NCBI GenBank assembly: GCA_947172415.1
Contig: OX359192.1
Coordinates: forward strand, 8,838,901 to 8,902,900
DNA: 64,000 nt
Direction: 5' to 3'
From: Chondrosia reniformis
Lineage: Eukaryota; Porifera; Demospongiae; Chondrillida; Chondrillidae
The translations under genes were made by a program, and so were the position numbers. How positions within the stretch are numbered: position 1 is the first letter of the stretch; each line of letters opens with the position of its first letter. Shown here in pieces: positions 44,093-60,149 of the stretch. Under the pieces are notes generated by a model. That model made no database searches. It was not told the origin of the DNA and was given only the letters and a program-made list of their open reading frames with translations.

Positions 44093-47085
<2,993 letters not shown>

Positions 47086-47204
47086 TGCTTGGAAGCAGAA
47101 GGCTTGAGCCGAACTTCCGAACTTCCTAAAGCACAAATTGATTCTATATGTTCGGCCAGCCGAAAGGAAATCCCCGTAATTAGATTGAGATCACGCCCAC
47201 AAAG
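47086..47204. promoter_or_regulatory. Divergent promoter region PDPK1 / ATP5PD
   Basis: 119 bp between opposite-facing start codons. A shared promoter is inferred. Confidence 0.5.
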
Positions 47205-48008
47205 ATGAGCGCAAGAAGAGCTGGTCAAAAGGTTTTCGACTGGAGCAAGCTGTCTTCTTCCGTACCTCAAGAGGCTAGAGCGGAACTCGCCGCTTTCCGT
47301 GCTCGACACGAAGCGGCGAGAACAGCGTAAGTGACTAGTTGAACAGACATCATTTGGCGTGTGACATCTGTCCCTTTGCCTACAGTTGTATGTCCTTGCC
47401 AGAGACACCCGAACCGATAAATTGGCAATATTATCAAAAGAATATTTCAAAAGCCAATTTTGTAGACTCCTTCAAGAAACAAGTAAGCAATATTTCTACT
47501 CCTAATAAGGAAGTCCCTACATGTACCATCATCCACTGTAGTTTGAGGCGGTGAGCATACCTTATCCGAAGGACACTACAACTGAAGAAGTGAACAAGCA
47601 AGAGAAGGAATTTGTAAGTGCACTGAGGTTTTGTAACCATGGCAACATATTGCCTTTGTGTTTCCAGGAGAGTGAAGCGTTGGATGTCATTAAGAGGTCG
47701 AAATTGCAGGCACAGGAGCTTAGGAAGGAAGTGAGTTCCATGTCACATGACATACATGTGACCAGTCACTCTGTATCCACCCTACTAGCTTGAAGGAATA
47801 CTTGCCCAGAAGTCATATCAGGACATGACGGTGAGTCTGGTCAACCTTACTGCTTCCTACGGGCCTGTTACTGCTTCCTACGGGCCTGTTACTGCTTACT
47901 GAAATGTATGTGACCTTGCTTCCTGTGCAGATTGATGAGTATTTGGAAGACAAGCCGGAGCTTCGCAAGCAGGTTGAAGTGGATATGAAGAACCATCAGT
48001 GGTATTAG
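47205..48008 (+). CDS. ATP5PD: ATP synthase subunit d (mitochondrial F1Fo)
   Basis: Six exons: 47205-47326, 47386-47482, 47542-47613, 47668-47730, 47789-47830, 47931-48008. MSARRAGQKVFDWSKLSSSV matches the start of human ATP5PD (KLALKTIDW). LPETPEPINWQYYQKNISKA matches LPENPPAIDWAYYKANVAKA. DMTIDEYLEDKPEL matches QMTIEDLNEAFPE, and the protein ends HQWY. It is a peripheral stalk subunit of ATP synthase. Length about 157 residues fits the family (161). Exons are small (42-122 nt), and every intron is short. Confidence 0.95.
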
Positions 48009-48364
48009 GACTGTAACTATCTGATAGTAACGTGTTGTGTACACTAACTTTTATTTCTTATCTCCTGACAACGTCTTATGTAGTTAATTTGAAATTTCAT
48101 TATGAGCAATGCAATGCACTGTATATCTTACCTCATGAAAGAGTACTTTAAGCTGATCTTATTACCCCACCCACTCATGTCTCGAGCAGAGTGTGGAACA
48201 ACCAAGTTGTGGTTGATGGGAACCAGTGTGTCCTTTTAGACACTCACAGAGATGGTTGAGCCATAGACAGCTGTTTTATCCTCACTGTACAATTCTACCA
48301 TTCATGGAAGGTAGCTATAAGTTTTAAAATTTACAAATTAGTTGAATAATGTAAATTTGATGAG
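48009..48364. other. Convergent 3' spacer between ATP5PD and TMF1
   Basis: 356 bp with no coding sequence seen. It should carry the 3' UTRs of ATP5PD (+) and TMF1 (-). Confidence 0.6.
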
Positions 48365-51300
48365 TCAGTTTCTTCCTAATTGTTTAAGGAGGTGCTCAAT
48401 TTCCTGTTTATGCATTTCCTTAATGTCATAAAGATCCAATCTCAGCTCCTCTGCTACTTCACTTTTCTCACCATACATTTGTAGCAGAGTGTCATAGCGT
48501 TTAGTTAAGTCCTGGAGCAGAGGGATGGTTCATATAGTACATCCAAGTATAGTCAGCTATCACTTACCGCTAGCTGAGACCGCAGATCTGGTATCATCTC
48601 ATTTTGCTTTTTCAAGAATTCATTAGCTTCTGTCAATTTAGCAATTTCACTTGTCAAAGCTGAGCGTGACCTGTCCAAGGATGACACCAAACTCTGTATG
48701 TTGTAGAGCTCTCCTTCCTTCAGCTTCAGTTGGGTCTGGAACTGCTCCAGGAGGGGGCCGGAGGGGGTGGGGGCAGCCCTGGAGAAAGAGGAATCCCAGA
48801 GAGAGCCCATGTCCCTTGAATGAGACCTGCTGTAGCTCTCAACCTGCAGCCAACACACCGCAAACAGCTGTGAGTGGGTGGGGCAAGAGTGACAGTAGTT
48901 AGGGTTACCTGATCAGAAGATTGACTGGGAATGCGAGATCTCTCTGGCGATTCAGAAGCCATTTTCTGTTGTTGCACAAGTGATTGCCTTTCCTACGTAT
49001 GTTTGTGAAAAAGTAGATCTTATTGAACAAACTGCTCTTCAAGGTACAAGAGAACACACATAGAACTGACTACCTTCTCCTGAGCTTCACTGACTGCACG
49101 CTTCAAGTCTGCCTCCAGCTTGCTCCTTTCGTACTCCAACTTTCTGTGTAAGGTCTCCTGAAGTGCAGATAGCACATGAAGGGAGTGGCAACAGAGGTCA
49201 AAGGTCAAACCTTTTCTTTCTGCAGTTGTTCAACTGTACTGGAATAGCTAGTTTTCAGTGACTCTATCTTCAACAGCAATCTATAAAGGCATCACAGAGG
49301 AGATCTAAGTTGGGACAAGCAAGCCAATAGAGTGGGGCCACAAACATTTCTTCCTTTTCTTCAAGAGCTGATACTTTACTAGTTTCAAGATCTAACGAAG
49401 CTGTTAAAGTGGCCTTTTCTTGTCGAAGTACTTTCACCTGGTTCTCTAATACAGTAACCCGTTTCTGCAAAACCATTTCCTTTTCTGTGAAATCTCTTTC
49501 TCTCTCTTCCACCTCTTGCAGCTGGGACTGGGTTGCAGTCAGCCTCTCAGTGAGGGAGGCCTCGATTCTGTCCCAATTGGCAGCTTGTGTAGAGTGCACT
49601 GACTGCAAGTTCTCCAACTGCCTCAACAAAGGCTTAGTGGCTGTAGATGCAAGAATATCACATGACTTGCATGTGACCTGCATGTGACCTACACCACACA
49701 TAGAGTACCTTGAGAAACACTTGAAGATAGTTCTTCATTCCGAGCCTCAGCTTCTTGCAGCCTCTGGAGGGGGAGAGGTGGCACTAGACAAGAGAAGGTG
49801 ATGGATATGGAGGTGATCCTACCCCTTGCAAGCTGGACACCTCTTGTCTCAATTGATCCTCCTTCCAGGAGTGTTGCTGCTCAGAACGACCAAGTGTCGC
49901 TTGTAAGTCTGCAATCTAACACATGCAACATCAAACTAGCTGGAAACTGTGAATCCATGGGAACAAACCTGTATCCATGGCAACAAACCTGCATCTGCAT
50001 TTGGTCCCTTTGCTCCAGTGCCTCCCGCGACTGTTGTTCAAAGAGGGTCTTCATCTCCTCCTTGGCTGCAATCTCAGCCGAGAGAGCTGCCTCCCTGACC
50101 ACACTCTCAGTAGCAGCACTCGCCTTCTTCAGATCAGCCAACTCTCTAATGACACATTTTACACTCAGTGAACACTAGGACTTGGTCAAGTTGTTGGGAC
50201 TGTACTTGTAGACGCTGTCCAAATTGGACTGAAGGGAGCGCGTCTTGTCCAGCAATTCATCTCTCTCAGCCTACATACATGCACACTCTTCAGTAAGTAC
50301 AGGCACACAATATGGCGGCTCTGTGGACACACCTTTACTGAATTAAAGTCAGCTGTCTGCTGCTCAATATACAAGTTGAGCTTTGCCATGTTATCTGAAA
50401 AAGGGTGAGGGGGCGGGGCTATCTCCACACCCGTCAAGAAAGGACTAACATACGTACGTACCACTTGTTTTCTTTAGTTGCTCATTTTTCCTGAAGAGTT
50501 CCTCCTTCTGCTTGGAAATTGCACTGTCTGCCTCTTCCAGCTTCTTCCTAAAGTAATACACAAGCGGCGGTACACGACTACTTTCACTTGTGTGGTGTTG
50601 TGGTATACAAGTGGAGCACACAAACTTGTAGGAGGAGAGGGACTGCTGGTTCTCCCTGTCCTTGCTCCTCAACCTCTTGATCACATTCGACTGCTGGAGT
50701 TGCTGCTTAGATAACTTTTCTCCTTCCTGTCGCAGCTCAAAGATTTCAACTTCTTTTTCACTTCTAAAGAAAAAATGGAATTAGACACACTATCTCCCAG
50801 AGATTTCCAAAAGACCTACAAGGAAGATTTCTGAAGACCTAAGTCGTTTAACTCTCTCTTCAAATTTTCTTTTTCCTAGCAAATACAATAACATGATAGA
50901 AAATCTGTTGCCATGGTTACAAGCAGCCCATATACTTTCACTGCCAAATGTAGTTTTTTCTCTGCCAAAGAGAGCCTCTGTGTGAACTCCACTCTGAGAG
51001 AGCTGAGGTCAGACTGCTCGTCGCTCTGCTGGTCCTTGACAAAGGCAAGCTGACTATAGGCAGAGACGTACTCACCAAGTTACCTTCAACACAAGCACAC
51101 AGACAATCTCATCTAACCTCCTAAGCAAGTCGTTCTCCTCACTTAAAGTGGCGTTGGCCTTACTGAGTTCCACCAGTTTCTCCTCTCTCACCCCAAGGAC
51201 ATGCAGCACCCTCTCCAGCTCCTACACATAAAGAACAGCTGCAAACTGCTCTCACTGAGAGAAAATTGAACTTACACTTTTAATTTGCTCTACAGGCTCG

Positions 51301-52960
51301 TCATTCGCTACATTGCTGGGAGTAGATCTGTTCACCAGATTTAACTCTGTATTCTCATGAGCTAACTCTGTATTTTCTGGAGCTAATTCTGTATTCTCTG
51401 GAGCTAACTCTGTATTCTCTGGAACTAACTCTGTATTCTCTGGAGCTAACTCTGTATTCTCTGGAACTAACTCTGTATTCACTGGAGCTAACTCTGTATT
51501 CTCTGGAGCTAACTCTGTATTCTCTGGAGCTAATTCTGTATTCTCTGGAGCTAATTCTGTATTCTCTGGAGCTAATTCTGTATTCTCTGGAGCTAACTCT
51601 GTATTCTCTGGAGCTAACTCTGTATTCTCTGGAGCTAATTCTGCATTCTCTGGAGCTAACTCTGTATTCTCTGGAGCTAATTCTGTATTCTCTGGAGCTA
51701 ATTCTGTATTCTCTGGAGCTAACTCTGTATTCTCTGGAGCTAACTCTGTATTCTCAGGAGCTAACTCTGTATTCTCTGGAGCTAATTCTGTATTCTCTGG
51801 AGCTAATTCTGTATTCTCAGGAGCTAACTCTGTATTCTCTGGAGCTAATTCTGTATTCTCTGGAGCTAACTCTGTATTCTCTGGAGCTAATTCTGTATTC
51901 TCTGGAGCTAACTCTGTATTCTCTGAAACCGACTCTGTATTCTCTGGAGCTAACTCAACTAAAGCTCTCTGCTCATTAACATGCATCTGAGATGGCAAAG
52001 GAGATTCTGTTGTCATGGTAACCACATTTTCCCCAGGACCCCACTCAAATGTTGTTATTGGATCTTCTGATATTAGAATTTGAGTGGGTGAGTCCTCAGC
52101 TGCATTGGTGGGTGTGTCCTTAACTACATTGGTGGGTGTGTCCTTAACTACATTGGTGGGTGTGTCCTCAGCTGCATTGGTGGGTGTGTCCTCAGCTGCA
52201 TTGGTGGGTGTGTCCTCAGCTGCATTGGTGGGTGTGTCCTCAGCTGCATTGATGGGTGTGTCCTCAGCTGCATTGGTGGGTGTGTCCTTAACTACATTGG
52301 TGGGTGTGTCCTCAGCTGCATTGGTGGGTGTGTCCTCAGCTGCATTGGTGGGTGTGTCCTTAGCTGCATTGGTGGGTGTGTCCTCAGCTGCATTGGTGGG
52401 TGTGTCCTTAGAAGCCTTTGTGGGTGTGTCCTTAGAAGCCTTTGTGGGTGTGTCCTTAGAAGCCTTTGTGGGTGTGTCCCTAGATTTGTTGGCAGGTGTG
52501 CCCCTTATTGGAGTACTGTGCCTCAACTTTGAGGAAGTTGGCGTTTGAGTCTCAAACGAGCTCCAAAATGCTTCGCCATCCGTCACATCACTGGACCAAT
52601 AGGACTGCTGAGGTGGATCATTGCTAGATGAAGTCTTCGGAGAGGTGGTTTGGGTGGGCGTGGCTTTCCACAAAGAGGAAGCCCAAGTTCCCAGAGTGAC
52701 ATTGTCCTCTGGTTTCTCTGAGTTTGGGACTATACCTTCACCTGAGAGAGTGAGGGACATATATAGAAGAACGCGCCACTAAACAGCCCCGCCTCCCATC
52801 CGGAGATGGTGCAGGCAAATCAGACGCTAGACCTACCCTGACTATATTCAGAAGATCTAGAGTTACCAGTTTCGTTGATGTCCAGGACCTTATCGATTGA
52901 CTTTTGCGCTTGAGTTAGCGCAACCTTTGCGATGCCAATTCCTGACTGGAGCCAGCTCAT
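48365..52960 (-). CDS. TMF1: TMF1 (TATA element modulatory factor, Golgi coiled-coil protein)
   Basis: Exon 1, 52837-52960, starts MSWLQSGIGIAKVALTQAQK and SIDKVLDI, matching human MSWFNASQ and ALSQAQKSIDRVLDI. Exon 2 (51276-52741) is 1466 nt and mostly repeats. About fifteen coiled-coil exons follow, with PLLRQLENLQSVHSTQAANW (human PLLRQIENLQATLGSQTSSW), QFQTQLKLKEGELYNIQSLV and the C-terminal LLQMYGEKSEVAEELRLDLY. That last motif is the TMF1 RAB6-binding end (LQMYGEKAEEAEELRLDLED). TMF1 is a golgin that tethers vesicles at the Golgi. Two in-frame minisatellites occupy exon 2: about 30 ELAPENT repeats and about 17 DTPTNAAE-type repeats, together near 340 residues of low complexity not found in vertebrate TMF1. 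Confidence 0.93.
51336..51965 (-). repeat. 21-bp coding minisatellite in TMF1 (ELAPENT)
   Basis: About 30 copies of the 21-bp unit GAGCTAACTCTGTATTCTCT plus G (on +), in frame, encoding ELAPENT heptads. Variants are ELVPENT, ELAPVNT, ELAPENA and ELAHENT. Silent C/T changes alternate (aactct/aattct), showing that units have diverged mostly at synonymous sites. Confidence 0.97.
52083..52490 (-). repeat. 24-bp coding minisatellite in TMF1 (DTPTNAAE)
   Basis: About 17 copies of a 24-bp unit (GGTGGGTGTGTCCTCAGCTG plus CATT on +), encoding DTPTNAAE, DTPTNVVK and DTPTKASK octapeptides in frame. Three subfamilies are arranged in blocks. Confidence 0.97.
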
Positions 52961-53114
52961 TACTTACAACCTTACTTGATCATCAAGCGAGTCACTGTGT
53001 ACACACTGTATAAATGGAATCCAGCGCCATTTGTAGATTGCATAAGTCATATCACGTGACTTGCTGAAGTCGCTTCCAAGCCCACTTCCAATTGGATGAT
53101 CGATCGTATCAGAA
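52961..53114. promoter_or_regulatory. Divergent promoter region TMF1 / LUC7L
   Basis: 154 bp between opposite-facing start codons. It contains TCACGTGA at about 53051. A shared promoter is inferred. Confidence 0.5.
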
Positions 53115-55218
53115 ATGTCGGCCCAGGCGCAAATGAAGAAGATGCTTGAGCAGTTAATGGGCCCGCAAGGTTAGTGGCGTAGGTTTGTGTCAAGGAACAC
53201 CTCAAGTTCTAGTATGTTAATTTTAGTTTGTCAGCCATTTTCTTTTGGATTTGATTGTGCGACTCCATCTCACTAATTACTCACAGACTGTCACGTGTAA
53301 GACTCTACTACTGACTGTACATGTTAACTTTGTTTAGTGTACAATAATCAAGTGAGTTGTTTCACGTGAGTTGACTAATTTGTATGTTGTAGCTCTCAAT
53401 AGTTAGCAATGGATAATGTAATGTGGTCACACGACAGTCACATGATTATCCAATGACGTCACATTAGAGGAATATTTATTCTCTGCCCTGTAGATGATGA
53501 AGATACAGTTCGCCATTTCACAGATAAAGATGTCTGTTGGCCATTTCTGGTGGACATTTGTATAAATGACCTTTTCATTAATACAGTAAGCATACCTTGT
53601 TTTTGACTTAACTGCTTTAATGGAGTGTGATTTCTGTGTCAGAGAGAAGATATAGGACCATGTGACAAGATCCATTCAGAAACAATGCGGAATGACTTTG
53701 AAAAGGCCTCTTTAGAAAAGGATTTTGGCATTGAACAGGAAGTAAGTGCTTTAGTTTACAGGAAATACATGGGAATGCTACTTTTACAAACTTTCTTTCT
53801 CAGGTTCTGGGATTCATCAAAGATTTTATAAACAAAAACGACAAAAAGGTTGCTGCAAACAAGAAGAGACTTGAGGCAGAGGAGACTCCCGAATTGGAGT
53901 CAAAGGCAAAGGAGATCCACGACTTGGGAGTTCAGATTGGAGAGAAGCTGGCAAAGGCTGAATCATTAGGTTTGAAAGCTTTAGCTGCAGCCAGTGTGTA
54001 TTACTGATGTAGCCTGCTTGTCCCTCAGGATCAGAGGGCGATGTTGACGGGTCACTGGCAATGACTGCTGAGGTAGAGCAGCTGAAGAAGAAGAAGAAGG
54101 AAGCCGAGGTAAGCTGCCTGCCTTCTGAGGAGATGCCAAGGGTGCCCTTGACTCGTAGTCTGACCTCTGACCTGTGGCCTGGCGTGGTGTGACAGTGTTG
54201 TGCTCTCTCTAGGACCTCTATCGGGCCAGTGTCCCCGTGGGCTCCAATCAACATCAGCAGCTTAGGGCCTGTGATGTGTGCGGAGCGCTCCTGAGCCTCT
54301 ATGACAATGACAGGCGGTAGGTACCACCTCTCACTCTCTTCCTTTGATATGCACCATTTAGGAGGCCTACCACGCCTTGAGACCTCAAAGTACACTGCGC
54401 ACAAGTACACAGCGCCTGAGACCATGTGAAATTTGTGGTGCTTTCCTTGGTATGCATGACAAGGACACTGTGTAAGTCACCCTCACCCTCCCTATTGAGG
54501 TAACCATGGTAACACACAGCCATATCTTTAGTGTTAGTTTATCAGCAAATAACATCTTAAGATCTGTTTTCAGTAACCATAGCAACTAGTACCTCTCAGG
54601 CTGCTATGTAGTTCTGTAACCATAGCAACTAGTACCTCTCAGGCAGCTATGTAGTTCTGTATCCATAGCAACTAGTACCTCTCAGGCAACTATGTAGTTC
54701 TGTATCCATAGCAACTAGTACCTCTCAGGCAGTTATGTAGTTCTGTAACCATAGCAACTAGTACCAACTAGACCCTAGTAACTGTAAATTGCTTCTGTAG
54801 GCTGGCAGATCACTTTGGAGGTAAACTTCACTTGGGGTTTGTGGCCATTAGGGAGAAGGTTGTCCAGTTAGAAGTATGTCGCAATCATTGTATTATGTAG
54901 CTATAGTATAACATAGTTGTGTGTGCGTACGTAGAAAAGGATTGAAGACAAGAAGAGAATACGACAAGAAAGGAGGTTTAGAAAGGACTCTGGAAGGGGT
55001 AACTACAAAGAAGAACGCCAGCAGCAGCACAGGAGGAGGAGTAGAAGTAGGTCACGTGACCGAAGGAGGCGGAGCCGGAGCCGATCTAGAGAGCCCAGGA
55101 GGAGAAGTCGGTCCAGAGAGAGGGAGAAGGATCACAAGTTAGCAACAGTTTGCCTGATTGATAGCTGACACTTTACAAGTTGTTATTCAACAGACGTAGG
55201 TCGAGAGAGAGGAGATGA
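53115..55218 (+). CDS. LUC7L: LUC7-like U1 snRNP splicing factor
   Basis: Exons: 53115-53169, 53494-53585, 53643-53741, 53814-53969, 54029-54108, then either 54213-54316 or 54362-54471, then 54801-54873, 54934-55138 and 55194-55218. MSAQAQMKKMLEQLMG matches human LUC7L (MSAQAQMRALLDQLMG). The first zinc finger covers KDVCWPFLVDIC to CDKIHSETM. A helical region with KAEKL-like repeats follows. The second zinc finger (CDVCGALLSLYDNDRR or CEICGAFLGMHDKD, then LADHFGGKLHLGF) comes next. The C-terminus is Arg/Ser-rich (RRRSRSRSRDRRRRSRSRSR). LUC7 proteins are U1 snRNP components that influence 5' splice-site choice. Two phase-matched versions of the exon encoding the first half of zinc finger 2 are present. 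Confidence 0.95.
54213..54316 (+). other. LUC7L alternative exon 6A
   Basis: 104 nt between an AG (54211-54212) and GTAGGT. It encodes DLYRASVPVGSNQHQQLRAC then DVCGALLSLYDNDRR, closer to human LUC7L (LRVCEVCSAYLGLHDNDRR). It begins in phase 0 and ends in phase 2 (CG), joining to GCTGGCAG of exon 7 to give RLADHFGG. Confidence 0.85.
54362..54471 (+). other. LUC7L alternative exon 6B
   Basis: 110 nt between AG (54360-54361) and GTAAGT. It encodes EAYHALRPQSTLRTSTQRLR then PCEICGAFLGMHDKDT. It begins in phase 0 and ends in phase 2 (GT), joining to exon 7 to give VLADHFGG. Including both 6A and 6B would shift frame and reach a stop soon after the junction, so the two should be used one at a time. 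Confidence 0.85.
54556..54775 (+). repeat. About 49-bp tandem repeat in LUC7L intron
   Basis: Four to five copies containing AACCATAGCAACTAGTACCT and CTCAGGCAGCTATGTAGTTC in the intron between exon 6B and exon 7. Confidence 0.92.
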
Positions 55219-55394
55219 AGCGCCCAACCACTGGTGACGCAACACTTCTTTGAGCACTTTGATTATTTTGTAACGTGAATAGACGCACACGCTATCACAT
55301 AAATGGCCGACAAATAACATTTGTGAGTCAGTTTTGAATATTACAAGTCAAAAGCATTTAGCGCGTCCAGTTTACTTGCGCAAGTGCAAAAGGG

Positions 55395-57793
55395 ATGTCC
55401 TTAGCGGACGAGCTGCTGGCGGATCTAGAAGACGATGGACTGGGCGACATTGAAGAGCAGCAAGGAATAGATCAAAATGAAGTGATGGAAGTTGCTGTCG
55501 ACCTGGAATCGGTTAATAGTCGTTCGGTGAGGGACACCGCAAAGTTACTGGACAGTGCAGAGGTACGTGAACGTGCAAGAAGATGAAAATGGTACACCTC
55601 AAAACGTCTCCTTTTTAGCTAAAGGCAATGATTTTGGAGATCGAAAAGTATACGTCGGAAGCGCAAGCGTACAACAGTGAGTTCCATATTAGAAAAGCGA
55701 ATCTGAGAGATACAAATGGATCGCTCTTTTGATATCACGTGCAGTGAAAGGTCCAATTGAGGCTCACCCAGAATACAAACTGATTGTTGATGCGAATAAC
55801 ATGATTGCAAAGATAGATGATGAGATTGGTAAGTCATGTGACACACATGTGATTCTGTAGAAGGCTGATTGGCTGATGTCCTTGAGTGGTACTGTTGTCC
55901 ACTGTCTGTAGATGTTATCCACAAGTATGTACGTGATCTGTACAGCAAGCGATTCCCAGAGATGGAGTCCCTTATTCATCAGCCGTTGGACTACTGTAAA
56001 ACTGTTCAGGTTCGTGCCTTTGCATATTGTCATATTGTACCAAGTGGAGTCGACTAATACTTTAGTTGCTAGGCAACAATTTGGAGGTCACAAGAGTGAA
56101 TCTACAAGAGTTTCTTCCCGCCGCTACGGTGATGGTCGTCTCGGTAACAGCGTCTACCACTCAAGGGTTAGTTCAGTTAGTGGTGATGTGGTTGGTTACT
56201 AAATATAGTAACATGCAGGTCCCCAATATCGCAAGAAGACCTAGACCTCTTGTTAGAAGGTTGTCGGATGGTGGACCAATTGAATGACATGAAGATCAAT
56301 ATCTTGGATTATGTGGAGAGTCGTATGAGCCTAGTGGCTCCGAACCTCTCTGTAATACTGGGGTCCTCCATAGCAGCCAAGATGATGGGTCTGTTTATAC
56401 ACATTGTACAGTATAGGAATGTGTATTAATTGGGAGCTAATACACGTAGGTGTAGCAGGTGGTTTGACAAGTCTTTCAAAGATGCCAGCTTGCAATATTC
56501 TGGTCAGTTACTTCTAAAGATGGCACTTATCTTTGGCTGTGTTGCAACATCGCCTTTCTCTGTTCAGGTCCTGGGCTCCCAGCGGAAGACTCTCACTGGC
56601 TTTTCCACCACCACCTCCCTTCCACACACTGGATTCATATTCTATAGTGATCTTGTACAGTCTTGTAATGAAGTACGTATATGGGTGTATCCCCTTATAT
56701 GGGTGTATCCCCCTATATGGGTGTGTCCCCCTATATGGGTGTATCCCCCTATATGGGTGTGTCCCCCTATATGAGTGTATCCCCCTATGTGGGTGTATCC
56801 CCCTATATGGGTGTGTCCCCCTATGTGGGTGTGTCCCCCTATATGTTCCTAATTGGGTGTGTTCTGCAGGATATACGTAAGAAGGTTGCTCGTTTGGTGG
56901 CTTGTAAATGCACTTTGGCTGCAAGAGTGGACAGTTTTCATGAGCATGTCAACTCTTCTGTTGGACAAAGTAAGATTTTCAGTATATGTGTGTAAGATAC
57001 TTGTTTTAAAATCTCTGATGCCTGAACAAAGATTTGAGAGATGAAATTCAGCAAAAAATTGATAAGTGGCAGGAGCCGCCTCCAGTAAAGTTGGCCAAGC
57101 CACTTCCCAGACCTGACGACACTATCAAGAAGAGGAGAGGCGGAAAGAGGTGTGAGGAATAGTCCCTATCACTGTACTCCACCCTCCACTGTCCACGGTT
57201 GTGTGTTTCTGCAGGGTCCGCAAGCAGAAGGAACGATATCAGCTGACAGAAATGAGAAAACAAGCCAATAGACTCACATTTGGAGAAGTAAGCCAGGCAG
57301 AGGCTTGCCATCTAGATAACCACACATCTTCCAATCTGTAGATTGAGGAAGACGCTTATCAAGATGACCTCGGGCTCTCATTGGGACAGATTGGCAAGTC
57401 CAACTCTGGAAAGATTAGGGGACCCACTGTTGACCAGCGAACACAAGTTAACCTCTCCAAGAAGCTACAGGTATGTCGGAATGCTTTGACCTGACGACCT
57501 CCTCTCTAGTATATAATGTGTTTGTGTGTGCAGAAGCGCCTTCAGACATCGCAAGTGTTTGGTGGCAAGACTTCCATCAAGAGCCACGTCTCAGGTACTG
57601 CCTCCAGTGTGGCCTTCACTCCACTGCAAGGCCTGGAGATTGTCAACCCCCAGGCAGCAGAGAAGAAGCACGAGGTAAGTCACTCAGTCTCAGCCCTACT
57701 CCTTTCTCATTAAAATGGCTTTCTTTCTTCCTGCAGAAGAACGATGGATACTTCTCAACAACTGCCAGTTTTGTCAATTTAGGAAAACATTAA
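55395..57793 (+). CDS. PRPF31: PRPF31 (U4/U6.U5 tri-snRNP factor)
   Basis: About fourteen exons from 55395-55563 to 57738-57793. The N-terminus MSLADELLADLEDD is identical in style to human PRPF31 (MSLADELLADLEEA). PEYKLIVDANNMIAKIDDEI, YSKRFPEMESLIHQPLDY, ATVMVVSVTASTTQG, YVESRMSLVAPNLSVILGSS, GVAGGLTSLSKMPACNI, LGSQRKTLTGF, VARLVACKCTLAARVDSFHE, NRLTFGEIEEDAYQDDLGLS and GTASSVAFTPLQGLEIVNPQ cover the NOSIC/Nop domain and C-terminus. It binds the 15.5K-U4 snRNA complex. It sits directly behind LUC7L, another splicing factor, on the same strand. One intron is an 18-bp minisatellite. Confidence 0.97.
56678..56848 (+). repeat. 18-bp minisatellite in PRPF31 intron
   Basis: About ten copies of ATATGGGTGTATCCCCCT with GTG/GTA and TAT/TGT variants. 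Confidence 0.94.
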
Positions 57794-57926
57794 TTACTTT
57801 TGTCACACAGACATATGTATGCATACAAATATAATGGCAAGCCCTGCAGCATACGTTACGTATGTACTGTATGTAGTCTATATACGGATGTCCGTTGGGA
57901 AAACCCGGATCTGTATATACGTACGT

Positions 57927-60149
57927 ATGAGTATGGCGAAGGTTAGTTTGTTCGTGCTAGTCGCTACTGCGACGACGTATTTCCATTGTTTTTGTAGAGG
58001 ATACTGAAGGCGGGCTACTTGATAAAGTCTCCCGGCTCGAGTGGTCCGCTAAAGGCTTGGAAGAGGAGGTGGTTCGTCGTCTATGACGATGGATTGGTGG
58101 AGTACTATGACTCGGAAAAGGTAATTGAAGACCTCATTTTGTTAAAGACTTTAATAGCGCGTCTGTTTGTCTGTTGCTTCAGAAGAGCAAACTTCTGGGG
58201 AATTTCGACATGATTGAGTGTTCTGGTGTGCACGACGGGCTGACCAAATCGGGTCAGGCCCTATCACTCGCTATTGACACGCCTGGACGAACCTATTTCA
58301 TTAAAACAGAAACTAAGGAACTGTTGGATGAATGGCGAAAGGTATCCTCTTTAATACAAGGACTTTCACTACGTTTAACACAGGTTGTGACACACATATA
58401 ACATAGGTATACGTTTTTGTAGACATTTGATGCATTTGTGGAAGCTCCAAGATCAAAGTCAATATCAAATGACCCAGTCACAAGTGTGAGTGTGCAGTGT
58501 TTAGCTGATGTCATTGGTGCATGAGTGTGTGTGCGATCTCATTGTGAAGGAGACTTCACCAGCTACAAGTGACAGGAGACACAGAAGTGTTGCACAAAGG
58601 AACAGAGATCTGGAAGTCAGCATACAGGTAGTGGTGGGGGCGTAACCATGGTAGTGGTGGGGGGCGTAACCATGGTAGTGATGGGGGGGCGTAACCATGG
58701 TAGTGGTAGGGGGGCGTAAACCAACCATTGACCTTACCTGCCCTTGTAGAGTCAGAATGTGGAGTCCTACACTGATGCAGCCATCGACGAGGAGAGTACC
58801 AAAGACAGTCATGTGATTTTGGAAACAGACGAGGTGGAGCACTTGAGGAAAGAGTGTTCTGGAATGAAAGACAAGTTGAAGGACCTTGAAATAGAACTGA
58901 GTCGAGCAAGATCCAGCAGCACAAGCAGCAATGTGAATGAAAAGGAGTTCTATGAACTAAAAGCTACCTTGACAGAACAAGACCATCTACTTCAGCTAAA
59001 AACAAAAGACTTACTAGAAAAGGAAGCTGAGTTAAAAATTTTAGAAGCCACTTTGTCTACAAGAATCTCGGATCACCAGCAAGAAAAGGAAGGTCTCCTC
59101 AGAGACCTGGATATCAAAGAGACAAAACTCTCTGATGTAAAGGAGGACCTCAAGATCAAAGAGACAAAACTCTTTGATGTAAAGGAGGACCTCAAGATCA
59201 AAGAGAGAGAACTCTCTGATGTAAAGAAAGACCTAGAGATCAAAGAGAGAGAACTCTTTGATGTAAAGAAGGACCTAGAGATCAAAGAGAGAGAACTCTT
59301 TAATGTAAAGGAGGACCTCAAGATCAAAGAGAGAGAACTCTTTGAGATGGAGAAAAACAAAAAGCTTGAGCCTGGCAAGAGTGAAGGAGAGCCTGAGAAG
59401 GAGGTGGGTAGGTTAGAGGATCGTCAGTCACTCTCTCCAGATGATTTGCAGACAAGAACAGACAAAGTTGTACAGTTGGAAGATCAAGTCAAAGAACTTA
59501 AAGGAAAAGTTGATCAGCTTCAAATGGAAAAGGAAAAGGCCTTATTTGATCTGGCAAATGTAAAGAAATCCTTTAAAAGCTTGCCTTCCACAAACAAGAG
59601 TGTAGATGTTACCATTCGGGTCCCTTCTCCTTCTACTGGGGCCGCCTCTTCCCAAAACATCTTGTCTCAAAAGAGAGGAAAATCAGCCGCTCCTACTGCC
59701 CACACAAAGGTTGAGCCCATCCCAGGTAGGCATATCTGCTGTCCAACTACCTGTATACATTGCACGTGTGCATGTGTGTAGATTTTGTTCTGAGTAAAGT
59801 TACTTCTGATAAAAAGTCTGGGAATCTCCTTCAAAGGGAGTCAGAAATGGACAAAAGTATGTATTTGGTGTGTGTGTACTTGTGTATCAAGTATCCGGTC
59901 CTTTGTGGTAGGTAAGCCATTGGGTGGTACAACTTACCTGCTGGAGCCATGGCAACTAGACCACACTGAAGTGCACATAACCCCGCCCTCTCAAGGTACC
60001 TCACAAGCTTACTGCTGTATGCACTCACAAAGCACACGATTTCCTGTTTTCCAGGTTCTGTTCCACTGAAACCACAAAAGCCTTCTCAAGACATACTTGA
60101 CAAAACAATACATTTCTCTCCAGGTAACTTATTTAGAAAGTTTTTCTAA
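57927..60149 (+). CDS. PH-domain coiled-coil protein, family not identified
   Basis: Exons include 57927-57941 (MSMAK), 57998-58120, 58183-58341, 58423-58485, about 58550-58627, 58750-59727, then three small exons to a stop at 60147-60149. Exons 2-4 give a PH domain (KAGYLIKSPGSSGPLKAWKR, RWFVVYDDGLVEYYDS, TPGRTYFIKTETKELLDEWR). The large exon encodes a long Glu/Lys-rich coiled coil, partly built from a 42-bp in-frame repeat (DLKIKERELFDVKK, two heptads). QLEDQVKELKGKVDQLQMEK follows. A PH domain plus coiled coil suggests a membrane-associated scaffold. I do not recognise the exact family. The final exon reads to TAA without needing the GTAACT inside it. It is convergent with TMEM220, with 42 nt between stops. 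Confidence 0.8.
58625..58725 (+). repeat. CCATGGTAGTGGTGGGGGGCG repeat
   Basis: Four copies of a 23-25 bp unit (GTAACCATGGTAGTGGTGGG type) in the intron just before the big coiled-coil exon. Confidence 0.9.
59110..59350 (+). repeat. 42-bp coding repeat in PH/coiled-coil gene
   Basis: Six copies of a 42-bp unit (GACCTCAAGATCAAAGAGAG then AGAACTCTTTGATGTAAAGA and two bases), in frame, each coding 14 residues, i.e. two coiled-coil heptads. Confidence 0.95.

What the first reader, a model, noticed from the sequence alone, without database searches (positions are those of the whole stretch)
54213..54873. LUC7L has two phase-matched, apparently mutually exclusive exons for zinc finger 2
Exons 6A (54213-54316) and 6B (54362-54471) each encode a CxxC half-finger (CDVCGALLSLYDNDRR versus CEICGAFLGMHDKDT), both starting in phase 0 and ending in phase 2. 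Both join to the same exon 7 carrying the histidines (LADHFGGKLH). Using both shifts frame into an early stop, and using neither removes the cysteines. Only 45 bp separate them, which may itself block splicing of one to the other. LUC7 proteins contact the U1 snRNA/5' splice-site duplex (established for the family), so this would be a splicing factor whose own splice-site-reading domain is switched by splicing. I do not know of this arrangement in vertebrate LUC7 genes.
Basis: partly seen in the sequence, partly recalled or inferred. Interest (0 to 1): 0.88.

Follow-up and report, generated by a model that had tools for sequence, protein, structure and literature searches.

The report
Swappable RNA-reading finger in sponge LUC7L
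In a marine sponge, the gene for a protein that helps cells choose where to cut RNA carries two alternative versions of the exon for half of its RNA-contacting finger, built so that apparently only one or the other can be used.

Summary
The genome is the sponge Chondrosia reniformis. The gene (53115-55218, +) encodes a LUC7 protein; a second LUC7 gene lies on another chromosome. Exons 6A (104 nt) and 6B (110 nt) each encode the CxxC half of zinc finger 2 and end in phase 2. Exon 6B alone matches Pfam LUC7 (E 1.4e-4) at the columns 6A matches. Between them, codon positions 1, 2 and 3 are 59%, 71% and 24% identical: an old duplication kept under protein-level selection. A-only and B-only transcripts give 298 and 300 aa; both, or neither, give early stops. 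The 45-nt spacer is shorter than 27 of 27 curated introns (minimum 52). 6B lacks the Arg shared by 6A, the paralogue and yeast Luc7. Frame-guarded exclusive exons are known in another splicing factor, U2AF1, so this is a new variant of a known kind. No transcript or other-sponge evidence was available; public RNA-seq (ERR10177766) could settle it.

The parts
53115..55218 (+). LUC7 gene (LUC7L/LUC7L2 type by my reading), coding span: exons 1-9 with alternatives 6A and 6B
   Evidence: Spliced model, 298 aa (A) or 300 aa (B); Pfam LUC7 E 4.4e-73 (A) and 1.8e-70 (B) for the first 245/247 aa
54029..54108 (+). exon 5, constitutive by inference, ends in phase 0 (...KKKKKEAE)
54213..54316 (+). exon 6A: linker plus CxxC half of zinc finger 2, canonical version (CDVCGALLSLYDNDR+R)
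   Evidence: Pfam LUC7 alone E 1.7e-5
54317..54361 (+). 45-nt spacer (would-be intron 6A-6B); branch-point-like sites CTCAC (A at position 17) and TTGAT (A at 31); in-frame TAG at once if retained
   Evidence: shorter than 27 of 27 curated introns
54362..54471 (+). exon 6B: alternative linker plus CxxC half of zinc finger 2 (CEICGAFLGMHDKDT+V)
   Evidence: Pfam LUC7 alone E 1.4e-4; genome search hits itself and 6A
54472..54800 (+). intron before exon 7, holding a 43-bp x 4.6 tandem repeat at 54569-54765
   Evidence: one place in the genome at the tool's sensitivity
54801..54873 (+). exon 7: histidine half of zinc finger 2 (LADHFGGKLHLGF), common to both isoforms
54935..55218 (+). exons 8 (54935-55137) and 9 (55194-55218): basic, RS-rich tail, lost in the both/neither products

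Best explanation
Exons 6A and 6B are an old tandem duplication used as mutually exclusive alternatives in a sponge LUC7 gene. Shown from sequence: both encode the cysteine half of zinc finger 2, are phase-matched, have splice sites in the range of the gene's other sites, and join the same histidine exon 7; only 6A-or-6B keeps the frame. Inferred: the 45-nt spacer is too short to be spliced efficiently, so 6A is rarely joined to 6B, and stray both/neither products carry premature stops and are probably removed by nonsense-mediated decay. The result is two full-length proteins that differ only in the linker and front half of finger 2. Isoform A carries the canonical finger; isoform B keeps the zinc ligands but has TV where A has RR, so it probably contacts U1 snRNA or the 5' splice-site duplex differently (other selectivity, or weaker). 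How cells choose between them is unknown.
For: Frame logic: A 298 aa, B 300 aa; both = stop at codon 205, 370 nt before the last junction; neither = stop at codon 172, 255 nt before it. 6B alone is recognised as LUC7 at profile columns 178-203, 6A at 179-204; 6B joined to exons 7-8 matches yeast Luc7 at E 2.1e-11. Codon-position identity 0.59/0.71/0.24 over 34 codons, 13 of 34 residues identical; Fisher p 1.2e-4 for positions 1+2 against 3. Neutral decay of 6A to 51% identity kept an open frame, CxxC and at least 13 residues in 0.02% of 20,000 runs. Introns: 27 curated, 52-344 nt (one mis-set row of 28 dropped; 21 of the 27 re-listed). In the window, GT-AG joins of open frames are 3.0 per nt at 45-53 nt, 7.8 at 54-59, 10.3 at 60-65, baseline 3.9. 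Finger column 17 is Arg in 6A, the paralogue and yeast Luc7 and Val in 6B, the one column of 30 where those three agree against 6B.
Against: No transcript data. Direct 6B-to-6A similarity is weak (E 0.14; 7 of 17 residues in the finger half, 8 of 17 with yeast), so common origin rests on position, phase and profile match. No other sponge was compared: the collections scanned are prokaryotic and viral, and found nothing. The decay simulation puts the whole divergence on 6B and allows no indels. The curated introns were picked by my reading. Counts over 264 kb plus L005 show a small bump at 40-44 nt (39, against roughly 30 in longer bins). The steric argument is soft: this genome uses 52-nt introns, so the ~50-nt 5'ss-to-branch threshold proposed for mammals cannot hold here. 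No RNA pairing that would enforce the choice was found.
Confidence: 0.82

Rival explanations
1. 6B is chiefly a poison exon: 6A is constitutive, and 6B is sometimes added to give 6A-6B joined, prematurely stopped mRNA that lowers LUC7 level.
For: 6A+6B stops within 6B at codon 205 with three junctions downstream. Poison exons are common in splicing-factor genes (recalled).
Against: A poison exon needs no LUC7 finger: 6B matches the family profile, with constraint on codon positions 1 and 2. The 45-nt spacer makes 6A-6B joining unlikely.
Confidence: 0.1
2. 6B is a dead or dying duplicate exon that is no longer used.
For: No expression evidence; 6B lacks the conserved Arg and scores slightly below 6A on Pfam (22.1 against 25.1 bits). 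A very recent loss of use would leave little mark.
Against: Third codon positions are saturated yet frame, phase, splice sites, CxxC and 13 of 34 residues persist; neutral decay reproduces frame, CxxC and 13 residues in 0.02% of runs, under the simplification that all change fell on 6B.
Confidence: 0.06
3. Mutual exclusion is set by competing RNA structures (docking/selector pairing) rather than by spacing and frame, perhaps using the 43-bp tandem repeats after 6B.
For: The repeat array lies in the intron common to both choices.
Against: Four donor/acceptor stretches pair with the downstream intron no better than shuffled ones (P 0.34, 0.27, 0.29, 0.88; 300 mononucleotide shuffles each; for the 6B donor the shuffles faced a target 15 nt longer). 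The intron folds no better than shuffles (z +1.03).
Confidence: 0.05

Closest known systems
U2AF1 exons 3 and Ab (vertebrate U2AF35a/b)
   Same: A splicing-factor gene with a tandem duplicated exon pair; [quoted passage not shown]
   Different: U2AF1's 67-nt exons change seven residues of the UHM, in a 3' splice-site factor. Here half of a zinc finger of a U1-associated family is swapped, only 13 of 34 aligned residues are identical, and the host is a sponge.
OGDH exons 4a/4b (and alpha-tropomyosin, cited there): sterically enforced exclusive exons
   Same: Branch points close to the upstream 5' splice site are held to prevent joining the two exons (passages of PMC7969005).
   Different: OGDH's intervening intron is 118-131 nt in birds and mammals with mapped distant branch points; here the whole spacer is 45 nt and branch points are only predicted.
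LUC7 family (yeast Luc7; human LUC7L, LUC7L2, LUC7L3)
   Same: Pfam LUC7 E 4.4e-73 for isoform A; yeast Luc7 matched at E 2.2e-29; basic/RS tail as recalled for LUC7L.
   Different: Two alternative half-exons for finger 2. I saw no report of this in the listings of searches, several of which show only the top 15-20 papers.

Membership tests
LUC7 family (PF03194) | Profile match over the whole two-finger domain | tested here: met
   246.5 bits (A) and 237.9 bits (B), cut-off 33, profile 2-243 of 246
LUC7 family (PF03194) | Finger 2 ligands C-x2-C ... H-x5-H (motif read from the alignment) | tested here: met
   Cysteines from 6A or 6B, histidines from exon 7, in both isoforms
LUC7 family (PF03194) | Association with U1 snRNP | not testable with these tools
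   Needs biochemistry
Tandem duplicated mutually exclusive exons | Adjacent homologous exons with matching phases | tested here: met
   direct 6A-6B similarity is weak
Tandem duplicated mutually exclusive exons | Both or neither is non-productive (as in U2AF1) | tested here: met
   Stops at codons 205 and 172
Tandem duplicated mutually exclusive exons | Transcripts carry one or the other, not both | not testable with these tools
   No transcript data at hand; run ERR10177766 is listed in PMC12181767
Steric exclusion by a short intron | Spacer below the workable intron length | tested here: inconclusive
   45 nt against a minimum of 52 in 27 curated introns and a 54-65 peak; no splicing test
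Docking/selector RNA-structure exclusion | Competing intronic base pairing | tested here: not met
   No pairing beyond shuffles; no relatives to test covariation

The most novel reading that the evidence does not exclude
The exon pair is a LUC7-driven feedback switch. The 6B 5' splice site is purely intron-side (0 of 3 exon-side matches, 4 of 4 at +3 to +6), unlike 6A (1 of 3, and 3 of 4). Intron-side sites are the class from which human splicing is said to switch away when LUC7L or LUC7L2 is disrupted (passage of a review, PMC11732430). So active isoform A would promote 6B, making isoform B with a changed finger and a different 5' splice-site preference: a splicing factor that retunes its own splice-site reading through its own splice sites.
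Probability: 0.15. Interest if true: 0.88.

Novelty: new variant of a known kind. Interest (0 to 1): 0.62.

Why it matters
A review reports that human LUC7 paralogues affect two different classes of 5' splice sites (passages of PMC11732430); which finger residues set such preferences is, as far as I know, open. A gene that makes two otherwise identical LUC7 proteins differing only in the linker and front half of finger 2 would be a natural domain-swap experiment. It would also be, to my knowledge, the first LUC7 gene with a switchable finger, in an early-branching animal lineage, and RNA-seq that can test it is already public.

Tried and rejected
Vertebrate origin: rejected by matching contig lengths to the Chondrosia reniformis assembly. 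6B copied from the paralogue on C5: not favoured, since that gene carries both halves of finger 2 in one exon (L005 4171-4344), and 6B resembles the paralogue no more than it resembles 6A (7 and 7 of 17 in the exon-6 half). RNA-structure exclusion: no signal. Recent or long-decaying duplicate: not favoured, third positions saturated. Homologues in genome contigs and viral contigs (prokaryotic and viral collections, so uninformative about sponges): none by tblastn out of 25 and 89 pattern matches. tblastn of the 6A finger against phages: 9 weak matches, best E 3, taken as chance. Intron-length methods were noisy; one search found none of the known LUC7 introns, I think because its codon model was poorly trained; the window-only count with decoy dinucleotides was clearer, though the TG-AG decoy also rises to 6.5 at 60-65 nt. 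A whole-genome donor-acceptor pattern gave 514+467 matches against 424+455 for the reversed pattern, with many repeats among those listed, and was not used. Rfam at gathering scores (53000-55400) and tRNA scan (46000-58000) found nothing. In one search I labelled the ATP-synthase-d gene 'BCAS2-like' in error; Pfam says Mt_ATP-synt_D. One of 28 rows was mis-set (not GT-AG) and is dropped; that call and one search give LUC7 intron 7 as 62 nt, corrected to 61. One search used a wrong end for exon 7; one search is the corrected model. Not every intron of the PRPF31-like gene was set (8 used).

Full report
What it is. The window is C4:8838901-8902900 of a 117.38 Mb, 15-contig genome. Contigs 1-8 are 10409357, 10288994, 9415654, 8954400, 8804818, 8731016, 8459200 and 8125224 bases; chromosomes 1-8 of Chondrosia reniformis are 10.41, 10.29, 9.42, 8.96, 8.8, 8.73, 8.46 and 8.13 Mb, in an assembly of 117.37 Mb with 14 chromosomes and a mitochondrion (passages of PMC12181767). 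Only chromosome 4 differs in the last digit. So this is a demosponge, not a vertebrate.

The gene. I rebuilt the exons from GT-AG borders and frame: 53115-53169, 53494-53585, 53643-53741, 53804-53969, 54029-54108, 6A 54213-54316, 6B 54362-54471, 54801-54873, 54935-55137, 55194-55218. Isoform A is 298 aa and B 300 aa. Pfam LUC7 matches A at 4.4e-73 and B at 1.8e-70 over profile positions 2-243 of 246 (first 245 and 247 residues scanned). Among solved structures two chain sequences match A at E up to 0.1, both yeast Luc7 (best 2.2e-29). A Pfam search of the whole genome gave four LUC7 pieces, two here and two at C5:648417-649843. The C5 protein has the finger CETCGCFLVINDTPQRVQSHLEGKQHLGY; I take it as LUC7L3-type and the window gene as LUC7L/LUC7L2-type from recalled human sequences, not from a tree.

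The pair. Each alternative exon enters at phase 0 and leaves two bases of a split codon. 6A gives DLYRASVPVGSNQHQQLRACDVCGALLSLYDNDR, 6B gives EAYHALRPQSTLRTSTQRLRPCEICGAFLGMHDKDT; the split codon completed by exon 7 is Arg for 6A and Val for 6B. Joining both stops at codon 205, 94 nt before the 6B/7 junction and 370 nt before the last one; joining neither stops at codon 172, 255 nt before the last junction; retaining the 45-nt spacer stops at once after ...DNDRR. That such products would be decayed in sponges is assumed.

Is 6B real coding sequence? Alone, its 36 residues match Pfam LUC7 at E 1.4e-4 in columns 178-203, against 1.7e-5 in 179-204 for 6A; both short pieces fall below the 33-bit whole-domain cut-off, and joined to exons 7-8 they give 68.8 and 77.8 bits. 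Between the exons, 34 aligned codons are 0.59, 0.71 and 0.24 identical at the three positions: third positions are at the random level, the first two are not (Fisher p 1.2e-4). If 6B had been free of constraint for as long as third positions took to saturate, its first two positions should be near random too. In 20,000 neutral-decay runs of 6A to 51% identity, 28.9% kept the frame, 3.3% kept CxxC, 1.1% both, and 0.02% both with at least 13 of 34 residues kept; that model puts all change on 6B and has no indels, so it overstates the contrast somewhat. Against: a protein search of the genome with 6B finds 6A only at E 0.14, so the duplication is inferred from position, phase and profile.

How exclusion could work. 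Frame is the firm part. The spacer is the softer part: 45 nt against 27 introns curated by my reading in this gene (8), the C5 paralogue (6), an ATP-synthase-d gene (5) and a PRPF31-like gene (8), 52-344 nt (one of 28 rows dropped as mis-set; 21 window introns re-listed). Counting in the window strong donor/acceptor pairs whose removal joins open frames gives 4.4 per nt at 40-44, 3.0 at 45-53, 7.8 at 54-59 and 10.3 at 60-65, baseline 3.9; four decoy dinucleotide pairs lack the double peak, though TG-AG reaches 6.5 at 60-65. The wider, noisier count shows a small bump at 40-44 (39, against roughly 30 in longer bins, 90-nt flanks). Branch-like sites in the spacer lie 17 and 31 nt from the 6A donor. 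A paper on OGDH cites a threshold of about 50 nt between 5' splice site and branch point (passages of PMC7969005); a genome that uses 52-nt introns must tolerate less, so I rate this as suggestive. The splice sites of 6A and 6B score within the range of the gene's other sites (donors 4.5 and 4.5 in 3.5-5.5, acceptors 3.45 and 2.91 in 2.36-3.73). I found no RNA-structure signal.

What differs between the proteins. Over 30 columns of finger 2 in 6A, 6B, the C5 paralogue and yeast Luc7, the one column where the other three agree and 6B departs is Arg before the L/V-x-x-H stretch, Val in 6B; the neighbouring Arg of 6A and yeast is Thr in 6B and Gln in the paralogue. For fairness, 6A alone departs at one column too (Glu to Asp). 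In yeast, Luc7's second finger lies at the U1/5' splice-site duplex (passages of PMC9436412).

What is known. U2AF1 exons 3 and Ab are the closest precedent found: tandem, described as mutually exclusive, both/neither downregulated by NMD, in a splicing factor (passages of PMC5224494). 'LUC7' does not occur in the main text of a human survey of mutually exclusive exons (PMC5740500) or of one of tandem duplicated exon substitutions (PMC9741552); their supplements were not seen. The listings of searches (titles and starts of abstracts; of 44, 31, 78 and 109 matching papers only 20, 20, 15 and 15 were listed) showed no report of exclusive LUC7 exons. The library lacks most subscription papers, and three LUC7 papers I asked for by id were not held. 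Hence 'new variant of a known kind'.

Boldest reading. The 6B donor (TGT|GTAAGT) has 0 of 3 exon-side and 4 of 4 intron-side matches, 6A (GCG|GTAGGT) 1 of 3 and 3 of 4. A review reports that disrupting LUC7L or LUC7L2 moves human splicing away from sites with strong U6 ACAGA-box (intron-side) pairing (passage of PMC11732430). If that holds in sponges, LUC7L activity itself would favour 6B, a feedback. This is inference and I give it 15%.

Noticed in passing
window 51252-52778 (-): A 508-aa open frame (stop to stop) upstream of LUC7L consists largely of coding minisatellites: 21-bp x 29.3 (PENTELA repeats) and 24-bp x 16.5 (DTPTNAAE-like). A frame at 48553-48912 (-) matches TMF_TATA_bd (E 9e-10), so both may belong to one TMF1-like golgin gene; the joining exons were not modelled.
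   Followed up: partly
window 54569-54765 (+): 43-bp x 4.6 tandem repeat inside the intron after exon 6B; one place in the genome at the tool's sensitivity. No structural role found.
   Followed up: partly
window 55395 onward (+): Directly downstream of LUC7L, on the same strand, lies a gene with a Nop domain (E 6.8e-38 for the first 227 aa) that I read as PRPF31-like (name recalled), so two splicing genes would be neighbours.
   Followed up: no
window 47205-48010 (+): Mitochondrial ATP synthase subunit d gene with five short introns (Pfam E 1.5e-37).
   Followed up: no
window 56678-56845: 18-bp x 9.3 tandem repeat, apparently inside an intron of the PRPF31-like gene by my reading.
   Followed up: no
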